Shown here: positions 12,701-24,700 of the stretch, piece after piece
How the letters are laid out: each line of letters starts with the position of its first letter
Numbering within the stretch: the first letter of the stretch is position 1
DNA from: Galaxea fascicularis
Lineage: Eukaryota > Cnidaria > Anthozoa > Scleractinia > Euphylliidae
NCBI GenBank assembly: GCA_948470475.1
Contig: OX419341.1
Span: 9,966,801 to 10,030,800, forward strand
DNA: 64,000 nucleotides
Reading direction: 5' to 3'
Made by a program: the position numbers and the translations under genes
Notes under the pieces: generated by a model
What the model was told of the DNA's origin: nothing
The model's input: the letters and a program-made list of their open reading frames with translations, nothing else
The model's database searches: none

Positions 12701-15700
12701 TTCTATGGGAACCATCTATGAGTTTAAGGTTTTTTCCTTCCCTTCACAGCTGTTACAGAGAATGAGGAAAATGGATCTTCACAGATGAAGGTACAGGTGT
12801 GTCTTCTGTTATATCACATGGATGCCTGGCCAATCCACGTTTTTCCCTGTTATCATCAGGGTTTTCATTAAGAACTGAAGTAGTAGGAGGATATTATAAA
12901 GTAACAGGAGAATCTGGCCACTCAGACAAAAATTATCTTCAAGGCTGCTACAGGCCATCAAATTCCATGCAGTAGCCGGAGAATTCTCCGATCTCCGATG
13001 CCTAGTGAACACCCTGTTATCATGTTATCATGTACTTGCTAATTTAAGGCTGGAAACTGGTGGTACAGTGTAAATGTTAATTAACTGGTCAGGTTTCACA
13101 ATGAAACTTTGTGAGTGTAAACTACTCAAACCCCGCAACTTGTAGACCAAACTAGAAAAAAAATCAGCAAGAACATTTTCAAATAGATTGCAAATACATT
13201 TGCAAAGGCTCATTTTGCACAGTGTAAGTGTTCACTGGTCAGGTTTCATAACAAAACTTTGCGAGTGTAAACTACTCAAGTTCCCCAACTTGTAGGCCAA
13301 ACAAGAATAAAAAATCAGTAATAGCGTTTTCAAATAGTTTGCAAATAAATTTGTAAAGGCTCGTTTTATTCATTTCTGCATTTCTGTCAAGCTTTTTGAA
13401 GAAATATGAAACTTTTACACCATTTTTACATACATACATCATTATTAGCTTTATTTGTTAATGCAGGTTGATGGAAGTCAGCCAAAGGCTGATGTGGACC
13501 AGCCTATCTAAATACAATGAGAGTATACAATTGCTCTGTTCAAGGAATTATCATAATAGAAAAAACATTTTCAATTGACATTGAGTGTCCTAGGTGACTG
13601 GATTGCACAATATTTAAGTCACAAAGCTCGTAATTTGCATAAATTCAAACTTTCAAACACTGGAATACGTTAAGCAACCAGTGCCAGCTGGGTAGTGAAG
13701 GCCTTGTAAAAAAGCCATAGGGTTAAGTAAAACATATCTGGGAGTTTTCTTGTTTTGTTATGCAGTGGGATCATGACAAGATGATTGTTATTCCAATGAT
13801 ATTATTTAAAAAGGTTGGTCATTTTAGAAGGGATGGCACATATGAGGCCAAGACTTGAACTTTAGTGAATCATTAAATCTTTACTATGTTTTGTAACCAT
13901 GGTTTGCTGCAGGACAGCTCCAAAGAACAAGAACACAGTCCTTCTCAGAAACAAGAAGAGGAACAGAAAAAAAGCACTAGTAAATTTGGTAAAGCGTTTA
14001 CAAAGTAGGTGACAAAATTAATTGTTTCTTTTTTGAAAATACTTGTTTCATTAGAATACATATTTTATTACCAAAATGTCAGATCCAACAGAAGGCACAA
14101 AACTTACAGTACCGCTCAGAATTAACCTAACAGGGAACGCGTTCGAGAACGTGATCAGAACGAAACTAGAACGAATAATGAAGCAGCAACAGAACGGATA
14201 CGGAACGGGTTTGGAACGGGGACAGGACGGGTTTGGTGAACGAGTTCGCTAGAACGCGTTCCAGAGAACGCGTTCTAGAGAATGCGTTCTAGAGAACTTT
14301 CCGGCTAAAGGAGATTTACTGTATGTAAAGTCCGCATTTGTACGCACTACGCGTGTGTTCGCTTGACGTCCTGCCCGGTGACCTTGAAATAAAAGACGAC
14401 CTTGGCAAAATGACGGAAAGAACTTTGAAATTAGGTAAGTCATCTTTTGTCCTCGTTTTGCTATTTGTTTTAAACATACATATTGTTGCAGAATTGAAAA
14501 AAAAAAAACTTTTATCAATGCAATAACTTAACTGTTTTTAATCAAATATCTCTAGAGCAAAGACCTCCCGAGTACGTGGGGATAAAATTCCTTAACGAAC
14601 CCAAAACTGCAATCGTTGAGAAGAAAATGTTGTTAAAGCCAGAACTGATATCAGAAATAACAACGAATTCAGAGGTTGTTCTTCGTTTTAACAACAAAGT
14701 GGAAAAAGGAACAGTTGTCTGTTTAAGTGGTAAGTAAAGATTCACTTCAACAAGCTCTACTCAAGCGGCTTTGCTTACATGCACTCTCAACGATAAATTA
14801 ATAACTTAAGGTTTTCCTTTCTTTTCAACGGCCTTTTTTTCGGGGTGGGACGTAGCGACTCGGTTTTTAACGGCAGTACTCCATGATAATAGTTTTTAAA
14901 ATGTTAAAAAGATTTTCGGTTGATTTCTCTTCAATGGCTTTTCGTATGAAACCACTTTTTCATATTCAGGCGAGATGTAGGCGTAGGTACCCGGTTTTAG
15001 CAGAAGCTGGTCAATGAAAATAACTTTCAAAATGTAAGAAGTTTGCATATCATTTCTCTTCAATGTCTTATGATGCGTCTTAGGTAAAGGCGTAGCAGTT
15101 TTACACCGTAACAGCCGATCGATAAGATCTCAGTACCCGCGCATAGCAGTTTCCAAGATTTGGGAATGTGTTGGGTTTCGGTTCTCCTTAATAACTGTTA
15201 TTTTAGAATTATTACAACTTGATCCTTATGTCTTTTATCGAAATTGCAAAAGATCTCTAAAGATCTTTCATCAGCTCGTTTTGAATTGTTCGTCGTGAAT
15301 CGTTCGCATTATTGTTCATTTCACCACTGTTATCTCTGTCTCCAGAAATTGGCTGCACCGACTTCTGATCTGGTTTTTGTTCCATGAAGTTATTTAGACG
15401 AAAAAATACCACACCTACCTTATGAGTGAGAATAATCGCACCTAGCACTTCTACTTGGCAGTATTTTTTTTTTCCAGAAACAGCGAACCAGGTACATCAG
15501 ATGCGAACGTCAAAGAACTCGAGTTTCGGACAATCTCATGTGCACGTGCATGAAGAAATTTAATGAAACGTTAAGCTTATAGAGCAGAAGCGAGAAACAC
15601 ATGATAAAAACGATTGTGAAAACCAACCTTTATTCCAGTTGAAATTCTCTTCAAATTAAAAGCTTTATCTTCTCAAATACAATTTGATTCGTCTCCATTC

Positions 15701-18700
15701 TGCTTCTTTCATAGATAGCACTGACTAATTCCCGCCGAGTGAACTTCATTCTGTTCATAAGATTGCATTTCAGCATCTTTATCTTCTACTTATCTGTTCT
15801 GTATATTATTCAGTGTGGAACTGTAGATTTTTGATAGAGTTCTTTCCACATTGAGAACTCATACTCAGCGCTGTGCTCAGTTGCTTCAAGCTTTCGTTCT
15901 CTTCGGTGGCGCCACCTTTTCGCGCGTCGTTATTGTCAACAAAAATGCGCCAATCAGCACGCGAGAATTTACACAGTGTCTAAAATATAGTCGAGCGCGA
16001 GGCGAGACCGAAAGGAAAAATATAGATAACTTTTCTCTTCCTCTCACGTCGCGTTTCACGCTCGTGACTCGCGTTTCGCGCTCGGCTGATTAAACGCCTG
16101 TTACACAGGCTAGTCTAAAAGCTGCATTTAAACTGTTCATCATGCAGTAGAATACCTGAATTACTAGTGCTTGTCATTTTCTTTTAGACAAAATTACTGA
16201 ATCCGCAATTTTGATAGATGGTATGTCTATTTATTTATAGGAGTGTTAAGGCTGTATGATTTACCTACGGAGGTGTTAGTAAGGATCTTCAAATTAGTAC
16301 CCTTGCCAGAACTGATAAGAGGGATTTCGCCACTTTGCAAAAGATTAAGAGACGTCTGCCACTTGCCGTCTTTGTGGAGGCAGTTTAATTTCCACGTTGT
16401 TTACAACAAATCACGTTTTGATCACGTCTTTGAACACGCAGGGTGTTTCCGTAGTTTGTATTTTAATTGTGACACGCGACAACTGACAATGGAGGTCACC
16501 ACCAACTACATAGAAGACGCCTTAAGCCAATGTACTCAGCTGTTGGATCTGGACATCAGCTACAACCTGTCAATCAAGAAATTGAGTTTTATATTACAAA
16601 TACCAAAGTTAGAGATTTTGAATATGGAGTATTGCTGTAACGTTGACCCTGATACAGCAGTAGTGGCTCTTAAACAATTGCAAAATCCCAAAAAAGTTAT
16701 CTTGAGCTTGTGTGAACAGTTTAGTGAAGACCAGCTGTGCGAAATACTACTCAATAGCAGTTCCTTTGAGTACATTGATGTGGAGAAGTGTTCACCCCTT
16801 TCAATAAAGTCAGTACGGGCTATCATCACCACAAATCCTAACATTCAGACTTTTATGTTTTCACCTTCTTGGGGTCCACCTCCTCGATGGGTGAAGTTGA
16901 TTTCTAAGTATTCACAAGTAACATTTTCTACTGACCTAGAACTTATGTTTGATAGATGCATGTACCCCAGCTGGTTACTTCCTGAAGAACAATTCTAGTA
17001 ATCTATTAGATTTTGAGAAAAGAATGAGTATACTATGTGAACTCTTCTGCGAAAATGACTTGATAAAATCTTAGTAAGACCAGCTAACATAATACAAGAT
17101 ACAAGTGTGAAATTTTATTGCTTGCTTACCATATCCATGGTTGTCAACTTTAAAGGTTGACCTTTTTGGCCGACTCTGAGACTCTTTACTGACCTCTCCT
17201 GTAAATTTCTTGGAGATTTTAGACAAAACTATTGTGTCATTTCATGTTTATTTAAACTTAATTGGATTACTAATTACATACAAATGAACTTTGTTCAGAA
17301 CAAATGCAAAAAACATATCAAGTCATGGTCCTATCTCTTTCCAACGTAGGAGATTGACTGAGTGCCCTGCATAAGCTGGCTGCATGGGAAGAAAAGAACC
17401 TTGCCCTATTGCAAACTAAAATCAAAAATGTGAAACGAAAAGCTGGGTCCCGAAAAAACAAAGAAAAATGTGCCACACAAGATCATGATAAGGTATTGAA
17501 ACACAACTAACAGTGACAGTAGTAGTAACAAGAATATAGAAACAGATATGCTCTTTGGAAAATTTAAAGTTGAATCATCTGGAAGACAGAAAATTAGAAA
17601 ATTTCAAGTTCATGATATATGCTCTCATACCTCATAGCTACAACCAATATGAAATCTGAAAGGACCACTGACAGCAATTCATGTGGTGATTAATGCACAT
17701 TAATATTCATTTCCATGTGCTTACCAATAGTAACTGGTATCATAACACTCTTGACGGAAATCAAGTCGTTCAGTTCAGTTGTTTAATCTAACTTTATATA
17801 CAAATAAATACAAAATTTTGTATTTCATTCTAGAAAGCTAAAATTCTCGATGAAGGAGCTTCCTGCTCGGCTGCTGTAGGAGTGTGCAACGAATATACCG
17901 ACTACAGCCACTTAACAAAGGAAGAGAACCTTTATGTTAAAAAACAGCTAGAGCTTTTCCGAAAACAGAAAGAAAAGGGCACAGACACTACTGTATGCAG
18001 TACAGCCATTCCACCCATCAACACTACACAGCCATCTACAAATACATTTACTGCATCATCGGCAGACACTTCACCAGTGGCTACAGACACTGCAATCCAC
18101 ATTCCACCCATTAACAGCACCCTGCCATCAACAAACACATTCACCACACCATCCACTGACACTGCAGCACTGGCTACAGACACTGCATTCAACATTCCAC
18201 TCATTATAAACACTACACCGCCATCAACAAACACATTCACCACATCATCCACTGACACTGCAGCACTGGCTACAGACACTGCATTCAACATTCCACTTGT
18301 TAACAGCACCCTGCCATCAACAAACACATTCACCACATCATCCGCTGACACTGCAGCACTGGCTACAGACAATGCACTCAACATGCCACTTGTTAACAGC
18401 ACCCTGCCATCAACAAACACATTCACCACATCATCCACTGACACTGCAGCACTGGCTACAGACACTGCATTCAACATTCCACTCATTATAAACACTACAC
18501 CGCCATCAACAAACTCATTCACCACATCATCCACTGACACTGCAGCACTGGCTACAGACACTGCATTCAACATTCCACTCATTATAAACACTACACCGCC
18601 ATCAACAAACTCATTCACCACATCATCCACTGACACTGCAGCACTGGCTACAGACAATGCATTCAACATTCCACTTGTTAACACCACACTGCCATCAACA

Positions 18701-21700
18701 AACACATTCACCACACCATCCACTGACACAGCATTCAACATTCCACCCACTAACAGTACACTGTCATCAACAAACTCATTCAATGCATCATCCACTTACA
18801 CTGCAGCACTGGCTACAAACAGTACATTCAACATTCCACTCATTAACACTGCACTGACATCAACAACCTCATTCATCACATCATCCACTGACACTGCAGC
18901 ACTGGCTGCAGACAGTGCATTCAACATTCCACTCATTATAAACACTACACTGCCATCAACAAACGCATTCACCACATCATCCACTGACACAGTGGCACTG
19001 GCTACAGACAATGCATTCAACATTCCACTCATTAACACCACACTGCCATCTACAAGCACATCCACTGCATCACCCAGAGACACAAGCACTTTACCACCTT
19101 CATTTAATCTATCAATGTACGACACAGAAATATCTAGTGTCCACTCACAACCAGGGGGGTGGGAACCTACTTTGACAGAGACAATAACATTACAGAGACT
19201 ATTTGACAAAGTCCAGGATGTGGAAAACAAAGTAAGACTAATAATCGACTACCTGGGTATTGAAAAGAAAACGAAACGAAACTATCATGCGGTTACAGTA
19301 ACTGAGCCTGCAAATAACCAACTTCCTGCAGCTAAAACAACTGGCTCTTCCTACAAAATACCACCTGCTGTGAAGCAAAGAGCAGTATGTGTAAGCACCA
19401 GCAAGGGCAACCTAGCCAAAAATTTGTTGCTGGAAATATTCTCCCCAGAGGAGAGAAGAGCAAGAAATTGCTCAGGGCGTTCTAACTGTAAAGGGAAGGT
19501 GTCCCAACCCCTTGACCAAAGTAAGCTCATGGCAATAAAAGAATTTGTTTTTGAGCAATACCCAGATGTCCCTGTAAAACTTCAAGAACGAGTCTGGAAG
19601 GAGGAGTGTGTCAAGGCAATAGATGCCTTTTTGAGAAAAGAAAGGTGGTTATCCACTCAAAAAGAAAACAAAAATTTTGAGGCAGAGTAAAATGTAAGAA
19701 TATTGTAGCCTGAATTTCAACCTCGTCCTCTGGTCAGTTACTCCCAAGAAAGCACTTGAATCAAACATCAACAGATGCTTTCAAGTTGCATTGCCAGACA
19801 TTTGCTGTCAATCAGAATGTGACAAATTCCAGTAGCAGACGCCCTACTGCTTTTCCAGATTGGTTCTGCACCCATAGATAAATTAAAGGGCATAAATTTC
19901 ATTGAAGTAAATACCAGATATAGTTCATTGTATTCTACACAACAGTGTGATTCAGCCGAGTTATTGTTACCAAAGAGATGGCTGAAATTCAGGCAGGGTA
20001 CTTAACATTGATATCTTCAGAAGTTTTGCGTAAAAAGGTATTTGTAATAGTTGTATAGCAATACTTTGATTGTCAGCCCCCAAGTTGACTTTTTGGCTTC
20101 AGTATATTACAAAAGCATTAAACTTATTAAAATAGCAATTGTACATTTCTAACATGTGAGAATTTTACTTATTAAAAAAGTATTGAACTTATTTAAGTAG
20201 CAATATTGTACATTTTTAACATGTAAGAATTTTACTTATTTAAAAGGTTTTAAATGTATTTAAGAAGCAATTGTACATTTTTTTTGACTGTAGCTTAAAT
20301 AATTAACACCAGTCTTTTTATAGCATATGTACAGCCTTTCTTTTGAAAGAAATTAGCTTTAGTATACATTGATGTACTTAACTTGTAAATTTGTAAACTT
20401 GTGACAGTTCCAGCTTATGACTATGGGAAAAATAAACCCTTACTAAAAAAATGATGGAAACCACCTGTCTGATATTGTGTTATTGTGCAGTGCCACATGT
20501 AAATAAAGGCATAAATTCTCAATTGACAATACTGCTAATTAATTTTTCTTTACTTTGGCCAAAACAAAAATTCTCAAGATCTTAATTGGCTTTCCCCTTT
20601 GGCAACATATTGGACATAAAAATAATTCCAATTATTTTAATATTATTGGAACAGTATCAACAATCTTGTTGTTGGGATCACAAACAGAATCAACAAATTT
20701 GACTACGCCAAACATATTTTGATTGAAATGCATGGCATTGTTGCTACATGTACACATGTATCTTTCTTTTGCGACATACTTGAGACCTCTGGCATAGTTT
20801 TCCCCAAAGTGAACTGATATAGTCCGGCAAATGACATTTTTTTTTTTCGTTGAAAAACTGGTTTATAGGCGAACCAATGTTTTCAAACTTCTTGCCTTAC
20901 CACAGTAAAAATTGATCCTTGAAACTTCATGGCGACTTTTAACGGCACTTAAGGTCAGAAGCCTGAACTACATTAGAGGTAAGTTAATCTTGTAGAGTTT
21001 TTAATGTTTGCTAGTATTATGCAGCTGAAGACCGGCTCTGGTGTAAAACATTCGCCCCAACACAAAGGCATAAATTGAATGATAAGAGAAAACTTGTCTA
21101 TTCTTGTATTAAACTTAAAAAAAAACTTCAATAAGAACTGAAAAAAGTGTAAAATGCAAAACAAACAAACCAATTGCATGCAGTAAAATATGGTAAAGTT
21201 TCGTATAACTACGGTTATCGCTGCTACAACAACAACAAGTGCAAAGTTTGGACAACACCATAGAGACAGAATGTACAACAAAATACAAGTATATGCTTTC
21301 GTGTTCCATTAAAACGTGAACAGACCTCAACTGTACAAGAAAAAAATGAAACATGACAACATGAAAAGGAGTTCACAGCACCAAACTTGCAATAATATAT
21401 ATTCTGGTAACTAAGCTTCACCTTTGAAATTTAATTCAGATTTGTACTCAGTTAATTGTCTGTACTTGCCGTTTTCAGAAACTGCAATGATTTTAACCCC
21501 CCTGCTTGTATTTTCATTCATTTAAAACAACCGCTCACAGTAAATACAAAAAAAAACACCATTTACACCATTTTTGCACTTTCATCTGGATGAAAATTCT
21601 CACTCGCTTCCAAGTTTGATTCAAAGTCAGCAGTGGTCCGTTCCCAGGGTCTGGATGGGAAAATCCAGACCGCTGCTGTGTAGTCCATCAGCCAAGCAGA

Positions 21701-24700
21701 TTCAAGGATTAAGGATTTTGGACTGCTGAGATGCTTCAGAAAAAAATAACATGTATTAACCTACAACAGCAACAGACCAGTAATAATTTTTACGTGGATC
21801 ACTACCAACTGGAATCTTTTTGTTTTTAGTATCCTGATGCTGCTCCTTTCCGGACAATGACAACTGGTACAACTTTATCAATATGCCTGATATATCTGGA
21901 GCACATCTCAGGGGTTACTATGGACCAAAATGCTTTAATTCCCTGAATTAGCTCCTCCTTTGTCTTGGGCTTGACAAATTTCCTCAAAAACCACTTCAGT
22001 GTATGCCAAAGGTTCTCGATAGGGTTGAGATCCTAACCAAAGAAAAGAAAGCAAAAAGTGGCTAACATAAGAATTTTTTAATTTGCACTAGTGTCGTTAA
22101 AAAAAAACTGAACTAACTATAAAAGTACATTTTTATTTACTCCACTGAAAGATGACTGCGTAGTTTTACACTTTAGTTTACCCTTGTCAATCCGTTTGCA
22201 TTTTGAAATACAAACTACCGTCATATCAAAGTCGGCCAAATTCCCGTAAGTTTACCGTAATTTAAGCCGTGTTTTCCCCCAACCAAGATGGCGTCTGAAA
22301 CCGTGGAAAGGTCTGTTATCAATAGCCATATGTAGTCGTTGACTGCCTTTTTTTTAATGTAAGAGAAATATTTTTAATACCCAAATCAGAGCTTGAAATG
22401 AAGGTGCCGTGTTTGTTTTAGATGACAACTTACTCTAACACACGGACAGACAGCAACAGATAAACGGTAAGCTTAAGTTAAGTCCAAAGGAAGTCACTTT
22501 ATTTTTAAAAGCCTACGTGACAGCTTTCTCGGCCGTTTAAGGCGCGACACAAAAGCTTTGGAATTCATAACACAAAACGAATGTGATCGGCTACTCTCCA
22601 AAAATCAAATAATTAAAAATTTAATTTTGATTAAGTCTGACACGTGCAAGCGCGCGACACTTTGGGGGCCGCAAGTTGTTTCGCTTTGATAATGAGCTTG
22701 AAGCATAATTACAGTAATTAGTCGTAGAAGTCCAATAACAACAACAACAACAACAACGACAATTCAACAATAACGACTTCAACGTTTGCCAACAGGAATT
22801 TTAAAATGAGACTTACTGGAGACTCAGGTGGTGTGGGCCACCAGTTGACTTCATTCCTTTCAAGCCACTCCTGTGTTGATCGGCTCGTATGCTTAGGGTC
22901 GTTGTCTTGCATGAAACGGTAACCCATCGGGTATTTCTCACAGACGAAAGGCAACAAGAAACGAGATAAGATATTCTGATAAACCAAACTATCCATGTTT
23001 CCCTCAAAAATACAAACGCTTGTTGCACCTTTCACTGAAATACCAGCCCACACGTGAACCTGTAGAAAAATAAGTTAGAGCTTATCAAGAAAATTTCATA
23101 CCACCAGTTGCAAAATTTGCATAGACATGAAAATTCGTTCCTCTCCAGGGATTTTGTGCTCTTCCTGACTTAAAAGATGTTTAGATTTGTCTTCTTTAGC
23201 TCGAGAAAATTCGTAACGTACGTAGATTGTCAAAGTTGTGCTTGTGACGTTATGACCAAATAAGGAAATGCAATTTACGGAAACAAATAATTCGTAGTTG
23301 CACAGTACCTTGAGAGGATGTTTTGGCTGTCCTTTACTGCGGCGTTGTTCCCCGACTTTGTGGAAAGAACGGCGTGTATAACGCTCAATCTTGACCGAAC
23401 ATTCGTCGGTGAAAATTACATCACTGAAGTCATCCTGATTATCCAAAATGTTTAAACAGTGTTGCATTCTCTTTGGCTTGTTTACTTCTTTGACAAGCTG
23501 ACAGTATTTTGTACCGCTCCACCTCCAACCAAGTTTCCGTCGCACTCGCCGAACAGTTTGCGGGGACACATCAATGTCAAATCTGACTTGCAGAATTCTT
23601 GCAAGTTCTAGAGCCGAAAGCTCGTCATTTGCTTTCATTTCTTCATCGATAGCGTCAAAGTGTTGTATTACAAGTTTGCTCTTTCTTCCTTTCCTCGGAC
23701 GATCGCAGAGACTACCAGTTTCATTGTATCGTTTTAGGAAAAGACTGACTGCCGGTCTTGAAGTCACAATCCCATCTTCATCTCGTATTTTGCGAGTAAT
23801 TTCACTCACACTTTTACCAGTAAAACGTAAGTTAATTATTCGTCTTCTCGCATATTGCGACAGTTTCCCCATTTCGCAGTCAATGTTACCGGTTTTCGTG
23901 AAAGCGTTCCTGTGAACTGGTTCTAGTGAAAGAGGTCCAAGGAACGCGTTCTTTTGAACGGGCTCCAAAAACCTTGTTCTTGTACAGTTCATGTAAAGAG
24001 TTCCAAGGAACACGTTCTATGGAACCACAAGAGAACGGAGCTTGAACGGATTCGTAACGGGTATGGAACAGATACGGAACGGATGAGGGAACGGAACTTG
24101 AACGGATATGAAACGCGTTTCGTTCAGCGTTCCCTGTTAGGTTTATTTTGAGCGGTACTGTATCAATATACATTTATATGAAGAGCAGGAGTCTATCACT
24201 ACATAACATCAGACAATAATTACTTAACATTAAAAATCTGTTTAAACTACTCACCATAGACTTCATTATTTTATGTTTCCCGTGGGTTAATTTTCTATAG
24301 CAGCAGTTCAAATACTGGGCAGGTGCAAAATTCCTTTACATGCATACCATATGCTAGGCACTTGGTATTTTCATGCAACTTTTAATCATGCAAACCATAT
24401 AATAAACAGCTTATTAACCTTAATATTCAGTATTTAGGGCAGAATCTCAAACCTTTGCTTTGCTGTATTGACCTCACTATCTCTGTCAATATGGAAAGAC
24501 CTCAGTTTGAGATTTTCCTGTAAAGACCTTACTCTCAGTTAATAAGTATAATAAGTAGGTAGTTAGTAATGGGGAACTGATGTATTTACTGATATATCTT
24601 TCTCAGATTGCGGAGAACAAGATCACTGAGTATGAATCCCAGTGACAGCCCTGTTACAATAGAACCTCTTACAGTGAAGAGGTTTACAAATCACAGAGAC

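What the first reader, a model, noticed from the sequence alone, without database searches (positions are those of the whole stretch)
14107..24160. A 10-kb Tc1/mariner transposon carrying an F-box gene and a BEN-domain gene
Seen: matching inverted ends starting CAGTACCGCTC, TA on both sides, an uninterrupted spliced DD34E transposase of normal length, and 8 kb of other DNA with two host-like protein genes on the opposite strand. Known: Tc1/mariner elements normally hold one gene in 1-2 kb. Inference: the element captured or evolved cargo that may act on its host. The F-box protein could direct degradation of a silencing factor, and the BEN protein could bind element or host chromatin. I know of no described family with this gene set, though I could not search.
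Basis: partly seen in the sequence, partly recalled or inferred. Interest (0 to 1): 0.9.

Follow-up and report, generated by a model that had tools for sequence, protein, structure and literature searches.

The report
Jumping gene with F-box, BEN cargo
This 10-kb DNA transposon of the Tc1 kind carries, beside its own transposase gene, coding sequence for an F-box protein and a BEN-domain protein; selection likely kept both while the element moved, so they would be helper genes, unusual for this normally one-gene kind of transposon.

Summary
Window 14107-24160 has 34-bp inverted ends, TA on both sides, a spliced 337-aa DD34E transposase, an F-box coding exon and a BEN coding exon. The host genome, whose search answered four times, shows one mobile unit. 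A 146-bp element 1.24 Mb away is the exact left 102 bp, one base, and the exact right 43 bp, flanked by TA. A second copy on C12 starts exactly at the left end and runs collinearly through F-box, BEN and the last transposase exon at 88-98% identity per block, then breaks off.

The acceptors of the F-box exon and of a predicted third BEN exon fit, in the same phase, one pair of 5' exons. On the BEN route this copy has an in-frame TGA. F-box replacements fall 13:1 on the C12 relic, while noncoding changes split 28:21, so the cargo was likely under selection in the active lineage.

Nine searches of open papers listed no animal Tc1/mariner element with such cargo; ciliate TBE and Tec elements are multi-gene precedents. 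Function is inferred.

The parts
14107..14140 (+). left terminal inverted repeat (TA at 14105-14106)
14141..14300 (+). left subterminal GAACG/GAACGCGTTC repeats
14410..14434 (+). predicted shared 5' exon 1 of the cargo locus (ATG, donor GTAAGT)
   Evidence: no RNA evidence; lost by a 40-bp deletion in C12
14556..14729 (+). predicted shared exon 2: about 58-residue N-terminal domain without Pfam match; donor GTAAGT leaves phase 1
   Evidence: open in C12
16241..16998 (+). F-box / LRR-like terminal exon, phase-1 acceptor, own stop codon
   Evidence: open in C12; relatives
17350..17492 (+). predicted exon 3 of the BEN route (same acceptor phase as the F-box exon); in-frame TGA at 17355-17357 in this copy, sense codon in C12
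17834..19690 (+). predicted exon 4: Thr/Ser-rich array (12 copies of a 93/96-bp unit, one spacing of 72) and C-terminal BEN domain
21826..22032 (-). transposase exon 3 (catalytic E and C-terminus, stop)
   Evidence: present and open in C12
22817..23059 (-). transposase exon 2 (second catalytic D)
23309..23872 (-). transposase exon 1 (HTH domains and first catalytic D)
23900..24126 (-). right subterminal GAACG-type repeats
24127..24160 (-). right terminal inverted repeat (TA at 24161-24162)

Best explanation
This is one 10,054-bp DD34E transposon of the Tc1 kind that would move by cut and paste with its own spliced transposase and carries one cargo locus, predicted to be spliced in two ways, whose F-box and BEN-domain products likely help the element against its host. 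Two shared 5' exons, which code for a small N-terminal domain, are predicted to be joined either to an F-box exon with its own stop or to two BEN exons. The F-box product would bring proteins to an SCF-type ubiquitin ligase, and the BEN product would bind element DNA or host chromatin; the shared domain could aim both at the same partner. Shown by sequence: ends, TA, transposase frame and triad, F-box and BEN domains, a deletion derivative that has both ends, and a second partial copy with the same cargo. Inferred: splicing, selection on the cargo, anti-silencing role. My confidence by step: single mobile unit 0.95; shared-exon cargo locus 0.65; cargo kept by selection 0.6; SCF/chromatin mechanism 0.3.
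For: Single unit: ends and TA; 146-bp derivative at C7:8737140-8737285 with the exact left 102 bp and exact right 43 bp and TA on both sides; C12 copy homologous from 14105, just at the left end and its TA (105 bp of window flank were in the query), through 22180, 88-98% identical per 500-bp block without gaps. Transposase: complete 337-aa frame and DD34E; matches Sleeping Beauty 5cr4 at 1.9e-20; the relatives P0079 and P0091 (82% over exon 1) depart from the window-like P0011 just at the predicted exon 1 border. Shared exons: the F-box exon has no in-frame ATG before the F-box and BEN exon 3 has none; both acceptors fit the phase-1 donor of exon 2; C12 keeps these splice sites and has a sense codon where this copy has the stop. 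Selection: of 17 F-box residue differences between this copy and C12, this copy keeps the relatives' residue in 13, C12 in 1, 3 undecided; noncoding changes split 21 on this copy and 28 on C12 over 1745 sites; in BEN coding sequence this copy has 4 own changes (codon positions 0, 1, 3) against 13 in C12 (5, 5, 3) over 626 sites.
Against: No RNA data: splicing is predicted. The BEN route has an in-frame stop in this copy and BEN is decayed in the C12 and C3 copies, so no copy seen in this genome has an intact BEN route. Exon 4 has in-frame Met codons in and after its array, so a shorter BEN protein from exon 4 alone, without the shared exons, is not excluded. Pairwise F-box changes between this copy and C12 (18 replacement over 596 sites, 6 silent over 157) are near neutral as a pair. 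The selection counts are small, residue and nucleotide changes are different units (Fisher p 0.023), and the relatives used to polarise are not independent. 4 of 9 F-box relatives begin with Met at the third residue of our exon frame, so the F-box may be a stand-alone gene there. No BEN relative was found outside this genome (223 candidates, none at E <= 0.1, within a length limit). Only one complete copy was seen; whether it still moves is unknown.
Confidence: 0.6

Rival explanations
1. A real Tc1-type element whose cargo is passive: it once trapped a neighbouring stretch of host DNA with F-box and BEN exons, which travels without helping the element.
For: BEN route has a stop here and BEN is broken in C12 and C3. 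Host-type relatives exist in the same genome: 12 of 14 F-box matches at 24-34% and 13 BEN loci at 36-44%. Pairwise F-box changes are near neutral.
Against: F-box frame open in both copies; replacements fall 13:1 on the truncated relic while noncoding changes split about evenly. The relatives in this genome are too far off to be recent sources.
Confidence: 0.22
2. F-box and BEN are two separate cargo genes with their own promoters and first exons.
For: 4 of 9 F-box relatives start with Met at the matching place, so the fold needs no N-terminal exon; BEN exon 4 has in-frame Met codons of its own; a shared phase has a chance of about one in three.
Against: Our F-box exon has no in-frame ATG before the F-box and BEN exon 3 has none; the coding exons found upstream fit both in phase.
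Confidence: 0.3
3. The two ends belong to two separate short elements that happen to flank host F-box and BEN genes.
For: A short derivative with these ends exists.
Against: C12 copy: the left end and the cargo through transposase exon 3 lie together in another locus and the homology starts exactly at the end. The 146-bp derivative joins the left and right end sequences of this very element.
Confidence: 0.02
4. The cargo serves the host or makes the host depend on the element (for example as an antidote-type F-box), rather than fighting silencing.
For: F-box under likely selection. That F-box genes occur in selfish host-dependence systems of nematodes is recalled, from no call.
Against: Only one complete copy seen, in an intron, and Pfam names no toxin partner in the cargo exons; BEN route broken here.
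Confidence: 0.08

Closest known systems
Tc1 family of Tc1/mariner (DD34E, e.g. Sleeping Beauty)
   Same: TA flanks, about 30-bp inverted ends, HTH plus DD34E transposase of 337 aa; the one solved match is Sleeping Beauty
   Different: 10 kb instead of about 1.3 kb with one ORF (PMC7325037, passages) or 1-5 kb (PMC2874221, passages); transposase predicted to have two introns; 83 residues between the first two D against the 92 quoted in PMC2874221; cargo on the other strand
Ciliate TBE and Tec elements (Tc1/mariner relatives)
   Same: DD34E transposase plus further ORFs; purifying selection reported for TBE ORFs (PMC7325037, passages)
   Different: TBE carries a zinc-finger protein and a small ORF, Tec a recombinase; ciliate only; no F-box or BEN is mentioned in those passages; ends differ
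Caenorhabditis F-box A2 genes (PMC12062965; abstract, passages and section 12 read)
   Same: F-box coding sequence combined with Tc1/mariner-derived sequence
   Different: There an F-box gene took up the transposase HTH domain; here an F-box exon rides inside an element with a complete transposase frame, without fusion to it
KolobokP (PMC9587614; abstract and outline read)
   Same: Animal DDE transposon with a second protein gene beside the transposase
   Different: Other superfamily, long terminal direct repeats, a nuclease as second gene
Plant Pack-TYPE elements (PMC8903248; listing and start of abstract only)
   Same: DNA transposons that carry coding DNA of the host
   Different: Those are non-autonomous; this element has a complete transposase frame

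Membership tests
Tc1/mariner superfamily, Tc1 (DD34E) family | TA target-site duplication | tested here: met
   TA at 14105-14106 and 24161-24162; also at the 146-bp derivative
Tc1/mariner superfamily, Tc1 (DD34E) family | terminal inverted repeats of about 30 bp | tested here: met
   34 bp, 36 with TA, 94%
Tc1/mariner superfamily, Tc1 (DD34E) family | transposase of 282-345 aa with N-terminal HTH and DD34E triad | tested here: met
   337 aa, D155 D239 E273, 34 between; HTH_32 over its cut-off, DDE_3 in exons 2 and 3 at 0.00048 and 0.0031 but each under its cut-off; Sleeping Beauty 1.9e-20
Tc1/mariner superfamily, Tc1 (DD34E) family | 92 residues between first and second D (quoted in PMC2874221) | tested here: not met
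   83 residues. I treat it as a loose trait, not as defining: 1736 proteins matched at E <= 1e-20 and the 120 listed include full-length relatives of 45-56% identity, two of them named Tcb2 transposase (P0010, P0098)
Minimal Tc1 element | one ORF in about 1.3 kb, at most 5 kb | tested here: not met
   10,054 bp with further coding exons
F-box proteins (SCF adaptors) | F-box domain | tested here: met
   PF12937 36.4 bits, cut-off 24.3; PF00646 22.4, cut-off 20.5; SKP2 in PDB at 0.00039
F-box proteins (SCF adaptors) | binding to Skp1/Cullin and to a substrate | not testable with these tools
F-box proteins (SCF adaptors) | LRR substrate domain (FBXL type) | tested here: inconclusive
   LRR_4 at 0.0022, under its cut-off
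BEN-domain proteins | BEN domain | tested here: met
   PF10523 36.9 bits, cut-off 23.2; BEND3 chain 7w27 8.6e-6
BEN-domain proteins | DNA or chromatin binding | not testable with these tools
   needs an assay
Pack-TYPE elements | non-autonomous (no transposase of its own) | tested here: not met
   complete transposase frame
TBE/Tec | the TBE or Tec extra ORFs (zinc finger; recombinase) | tested here: not met
   Pfam finds F-box and BEN, no zinc finger or recombinase, in the predicted cargo exons

The most novel reading that the evidence does not exclude
An animal Tc1/mariner transposon with a built-in counter-silencing locus: one alternatively spliced gene makes an E3-ligase adaptor and a chromatin-binding protein that share one targeting domain, and selection on transposition keeps both.
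Probability: 0.2. Interest if true: 0.88.

Novelty: new variant of a known kind. Interest (0 to 1): 0.66.

Why it matters
Tc1/mariner elements are the textbook minimal transposons. A complete one that carries regulator-type cargo, with signs that the cargo is kept by selection in the moving lineage but decays in relics, would show that this superfamily can evolve accessory genes in animals, and would give a small, testable system for how DNA transposons may act on host ubiquitin and chromatin machinery.

Tried and rejected
Two-element reading: rejected. Copies in IMG/VR: two end patterns and the F-box protein or its alignment gave nothing (animal DNA is hardly expected there). Distant F-box loci of the genome as further elements: the fetched stretches around C3:23188823 and C9:16288434 (30 kb each) and C9:16097130 and C1:14795338 (10 kb each) gave no transposase or BEN match at E <= 1, nor did short stretches at five of the other eight (L018, L019, L023, L024, L025); L020-L022 were not scanned. 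BEN relatives outside this genome: none. Continuation of the C12 copy: nothing of window 22181-24126 in the next 30 kb. Structure prediction: switched off. The search for transposase copies in the genome and a mismatch-tolerant search for more short derivatives did not complete (among others), so the census of the family is incomplete. Papers: nine searches; two held no paper, and four listings were capped (25 of 74, 12 of 26, 15 of 108, 12 of 21); what was listed shows no Tc1/mariner element with F-box or BEN cargo. The library lacks most subscription papers.
Full report
What is there. The window (C7:9966801-10030800 of a 416.6-Mb genome in 170 contigs; organism not named) has a pair of inverted ends at 14107-14140 and 24127-24160, 94% complementary over 36 nt with the flanking TA. 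Random expectation for such a pair in 10 kb is about 6e-11. Both ends continue into arrays of GAACG-type subterminal repeats. The element is 10,054 bp with the base composition of its surroundings (38.7% against 38.0% G+C).

Transposase. Three exons on the minus strand, 23872-23309, 23059-22817 and 22032-21826, give 337 residues with D155, D239 and E273, 83 and 34 residues apart. Pfam finds HTH domains in exon 1 and two DDE_3 pieces under the cut-off in exons 2 and 3. The only solved match at E <= 0.1 is Sleeping Beauty, 1.9e-20. Of 1736 database proteins at E <= 1e-20, 120 were listed: P0011 is identical over exon 1 and, as I compare, differs from the window ORF in one residue of the intron read-through; P0079 and P0091 are 82% identical over exon 1 and depart from P0011 just at the predicted splice site; P0010, from Paramuricea clavata, spans the whole length at 56%.

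Cargo. On the plus strand, exons 14410-14434, 14556-14729 and 16241-16998 give a 318-aa protein with an F-box (4.5e-9) and weak LRR matches, nearest in the PDB to SKP2 (0.00039). The database search found 9 relatives among 845 candidates, 54-77% identical to the F-box exon. The BEN ORF, 17834-19690, has an array of 12 units of mostly 93 or 96 bp and a C-terminal BEN domain (4.4e-9; BEND3 at 8.6e-6). The F-box exon has no in-frame ATG before the F-box, and BEN exon 3 has none; BEN exon 4 has in-frame ATGs, but only in and after its array, so a short BEN protein from exon 4 alone is not excluded. The acceptor at 16241 and that at 17350 fit the same phase-1 donor at 14729. I therefore predict one locus: two shared 5' exons joined either to the F-box exon or to exons 17350-17492 and 17834-19690. 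On the second route this copy reads a TGA at 17355-17357; the C12 copy has a sense codon there but is broken elsewhere. The shared N-terminal domain has no Pfam match.

One mobile unit. In the own genome the left 194 bp match three places and the right 1371 bp match three, each from three scored candidates. C7:8737140-8737285 is a 146-bp element with the exact left 102 bp and exact right 43 bp of the window element and TA on both sides: the two ends of this very element appear to have worked as a pair, and the exact match suggests not long ago. The C12 copy (9469948 onwards) is homologous from 14105, just at the end and its TA, with 105 bp of window flank in the query, through 22180; ungapped blocks are 94-98% identical, the last 88%. 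It holds exon 2, F-box, BEN and transposase exon 3, has lost 40 bp at exon 1, has a 1297-bp insert at 14804 and breaks off at 22180; the rest is not in the next 30 kb. C3:9260092 onwards is an inner fragment from within the array to 21474, with stops in BEN and a 660-bp insert. C4:11920018-11920189 is a right end without a left end in the 1.5 kb fetched on either side. So one complete copy and four derivatives or relics were seen. The transposase protein search did not complete, so this is a lower bound.

Selection. Between this copy and C12 the F-box exon differs at 17 residues. By the relatives P0001-P0009, this copy keeps the old residue at 13, C12 at 1, and 3 are undecided (binomial 0.0018). 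In 1745 noncoding sites alignable in window, C12 and C3, 21 changes are the window's own and 28 C12's, so the two lineages have aged about alike. In 626 BEN coding sites the window has 4 own changes (codon positions 0, 1, 3), C12 13 (5, 5, 3), C3 16 (5, 4, 7). The pattern is what one expects if F-box and BEN were kept in the lineage that moves and decayed in the relics. Against it: small numbers, non-independent relatives, a near-neutral pairwise ratio, and the stop in the BEN route of the window copy, which would be recent. The tree of F-box sequences joins window and C12 (97/100) and puts P0006 and P0002 next (81/97, below the programme's mark for firm support), apart from the 8 distant loci included; the programme warns of long branches among those.

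How it likely works. Shown: an element with complete ends and transposase frame, and copies that speak for past movement. Inferred from Tc1 biology: the transposase cuts at the ends and pastes at a new TA. Inferred, weaker: the F-box product is an SCF adaptor, the BEN product a DNA or chromatin binder, and the shared N-terminal domain gives both the same partner, so that one isoform marks it for degradation and the other holds it on DNA. The natural target would be a silencing factor; no call tests this.

Against known kinds. Tc1 elements have about 30-bp ends, one ORF and about 1300 bp (PMC7325037, passages); the superfamily spans 1-5 kb with 282-345-aa transposases (PMC2874221, passages). 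Ciliate TBE and Tec have three ORFs (PMC7325037, passages). In Caenorhabditis an F-box gene took up a Tc1/mariner HTH (PMC12062965, abstract, passages, section 12), the reverse of the present case. KolobokP adds a nuclease (PMC9587614, abstract). My nine paper searches (four listings capped) listed no animal Tc1/mariner element with F-box or BEN cargo; this covers open-licence PMC only. By ends, TA and transposase it is a Tc1-family element; by size and gene set it is a variant for which I know no name.

Noticed in passing
window 7983-9263 (+) and 9760-10353 (-): A PIF/Harbinger-like pair of ORFs upstream in the same gene region: DDE_Tnp_4 transposase (3.3e-32) and a Myb/SANT-like protein (4.3e-05, under its cut-off).
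   Followed up: partly
window 17990-19083: Twelve tandem units, mostly 93 or 96 bp apart, code for a Thr/Ser-rich stretch in the BEN exon; the C12 copy lacks about 780 bp here, so the array length varies between copies.
   Followed up: partly
L006 (C12:9469001-9479000), about 1603-2899: A 1297-bp insert in the C12 copy at window 14804 with inverted ends beginning GGTATCATGGTAGG and TTAA at its borders, by eye a short piggyBac-like element.
   Followed up: no
G000 C7:9171495-9337246 (L019-L022): Four F-box-like matches of 24% with 4-5 stops each, spread over 165 kb on one strand of the window's own contig: perhaps a decaying tandem family.
   Followed up: no
G000, 13 loci (L040-L052): 13 further BEN loci at 36-44% identity (a lower bound); within their short flanks no F-box or transposase match at E <= 1e-3. 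Whether they are host genes or cargo of other elements is open.
   Followed up: partly
window about 3340-3430 and 4010-4120: By eye, an inverted pair that reads like a piece of a broken element; not tested.
   Followed up: no
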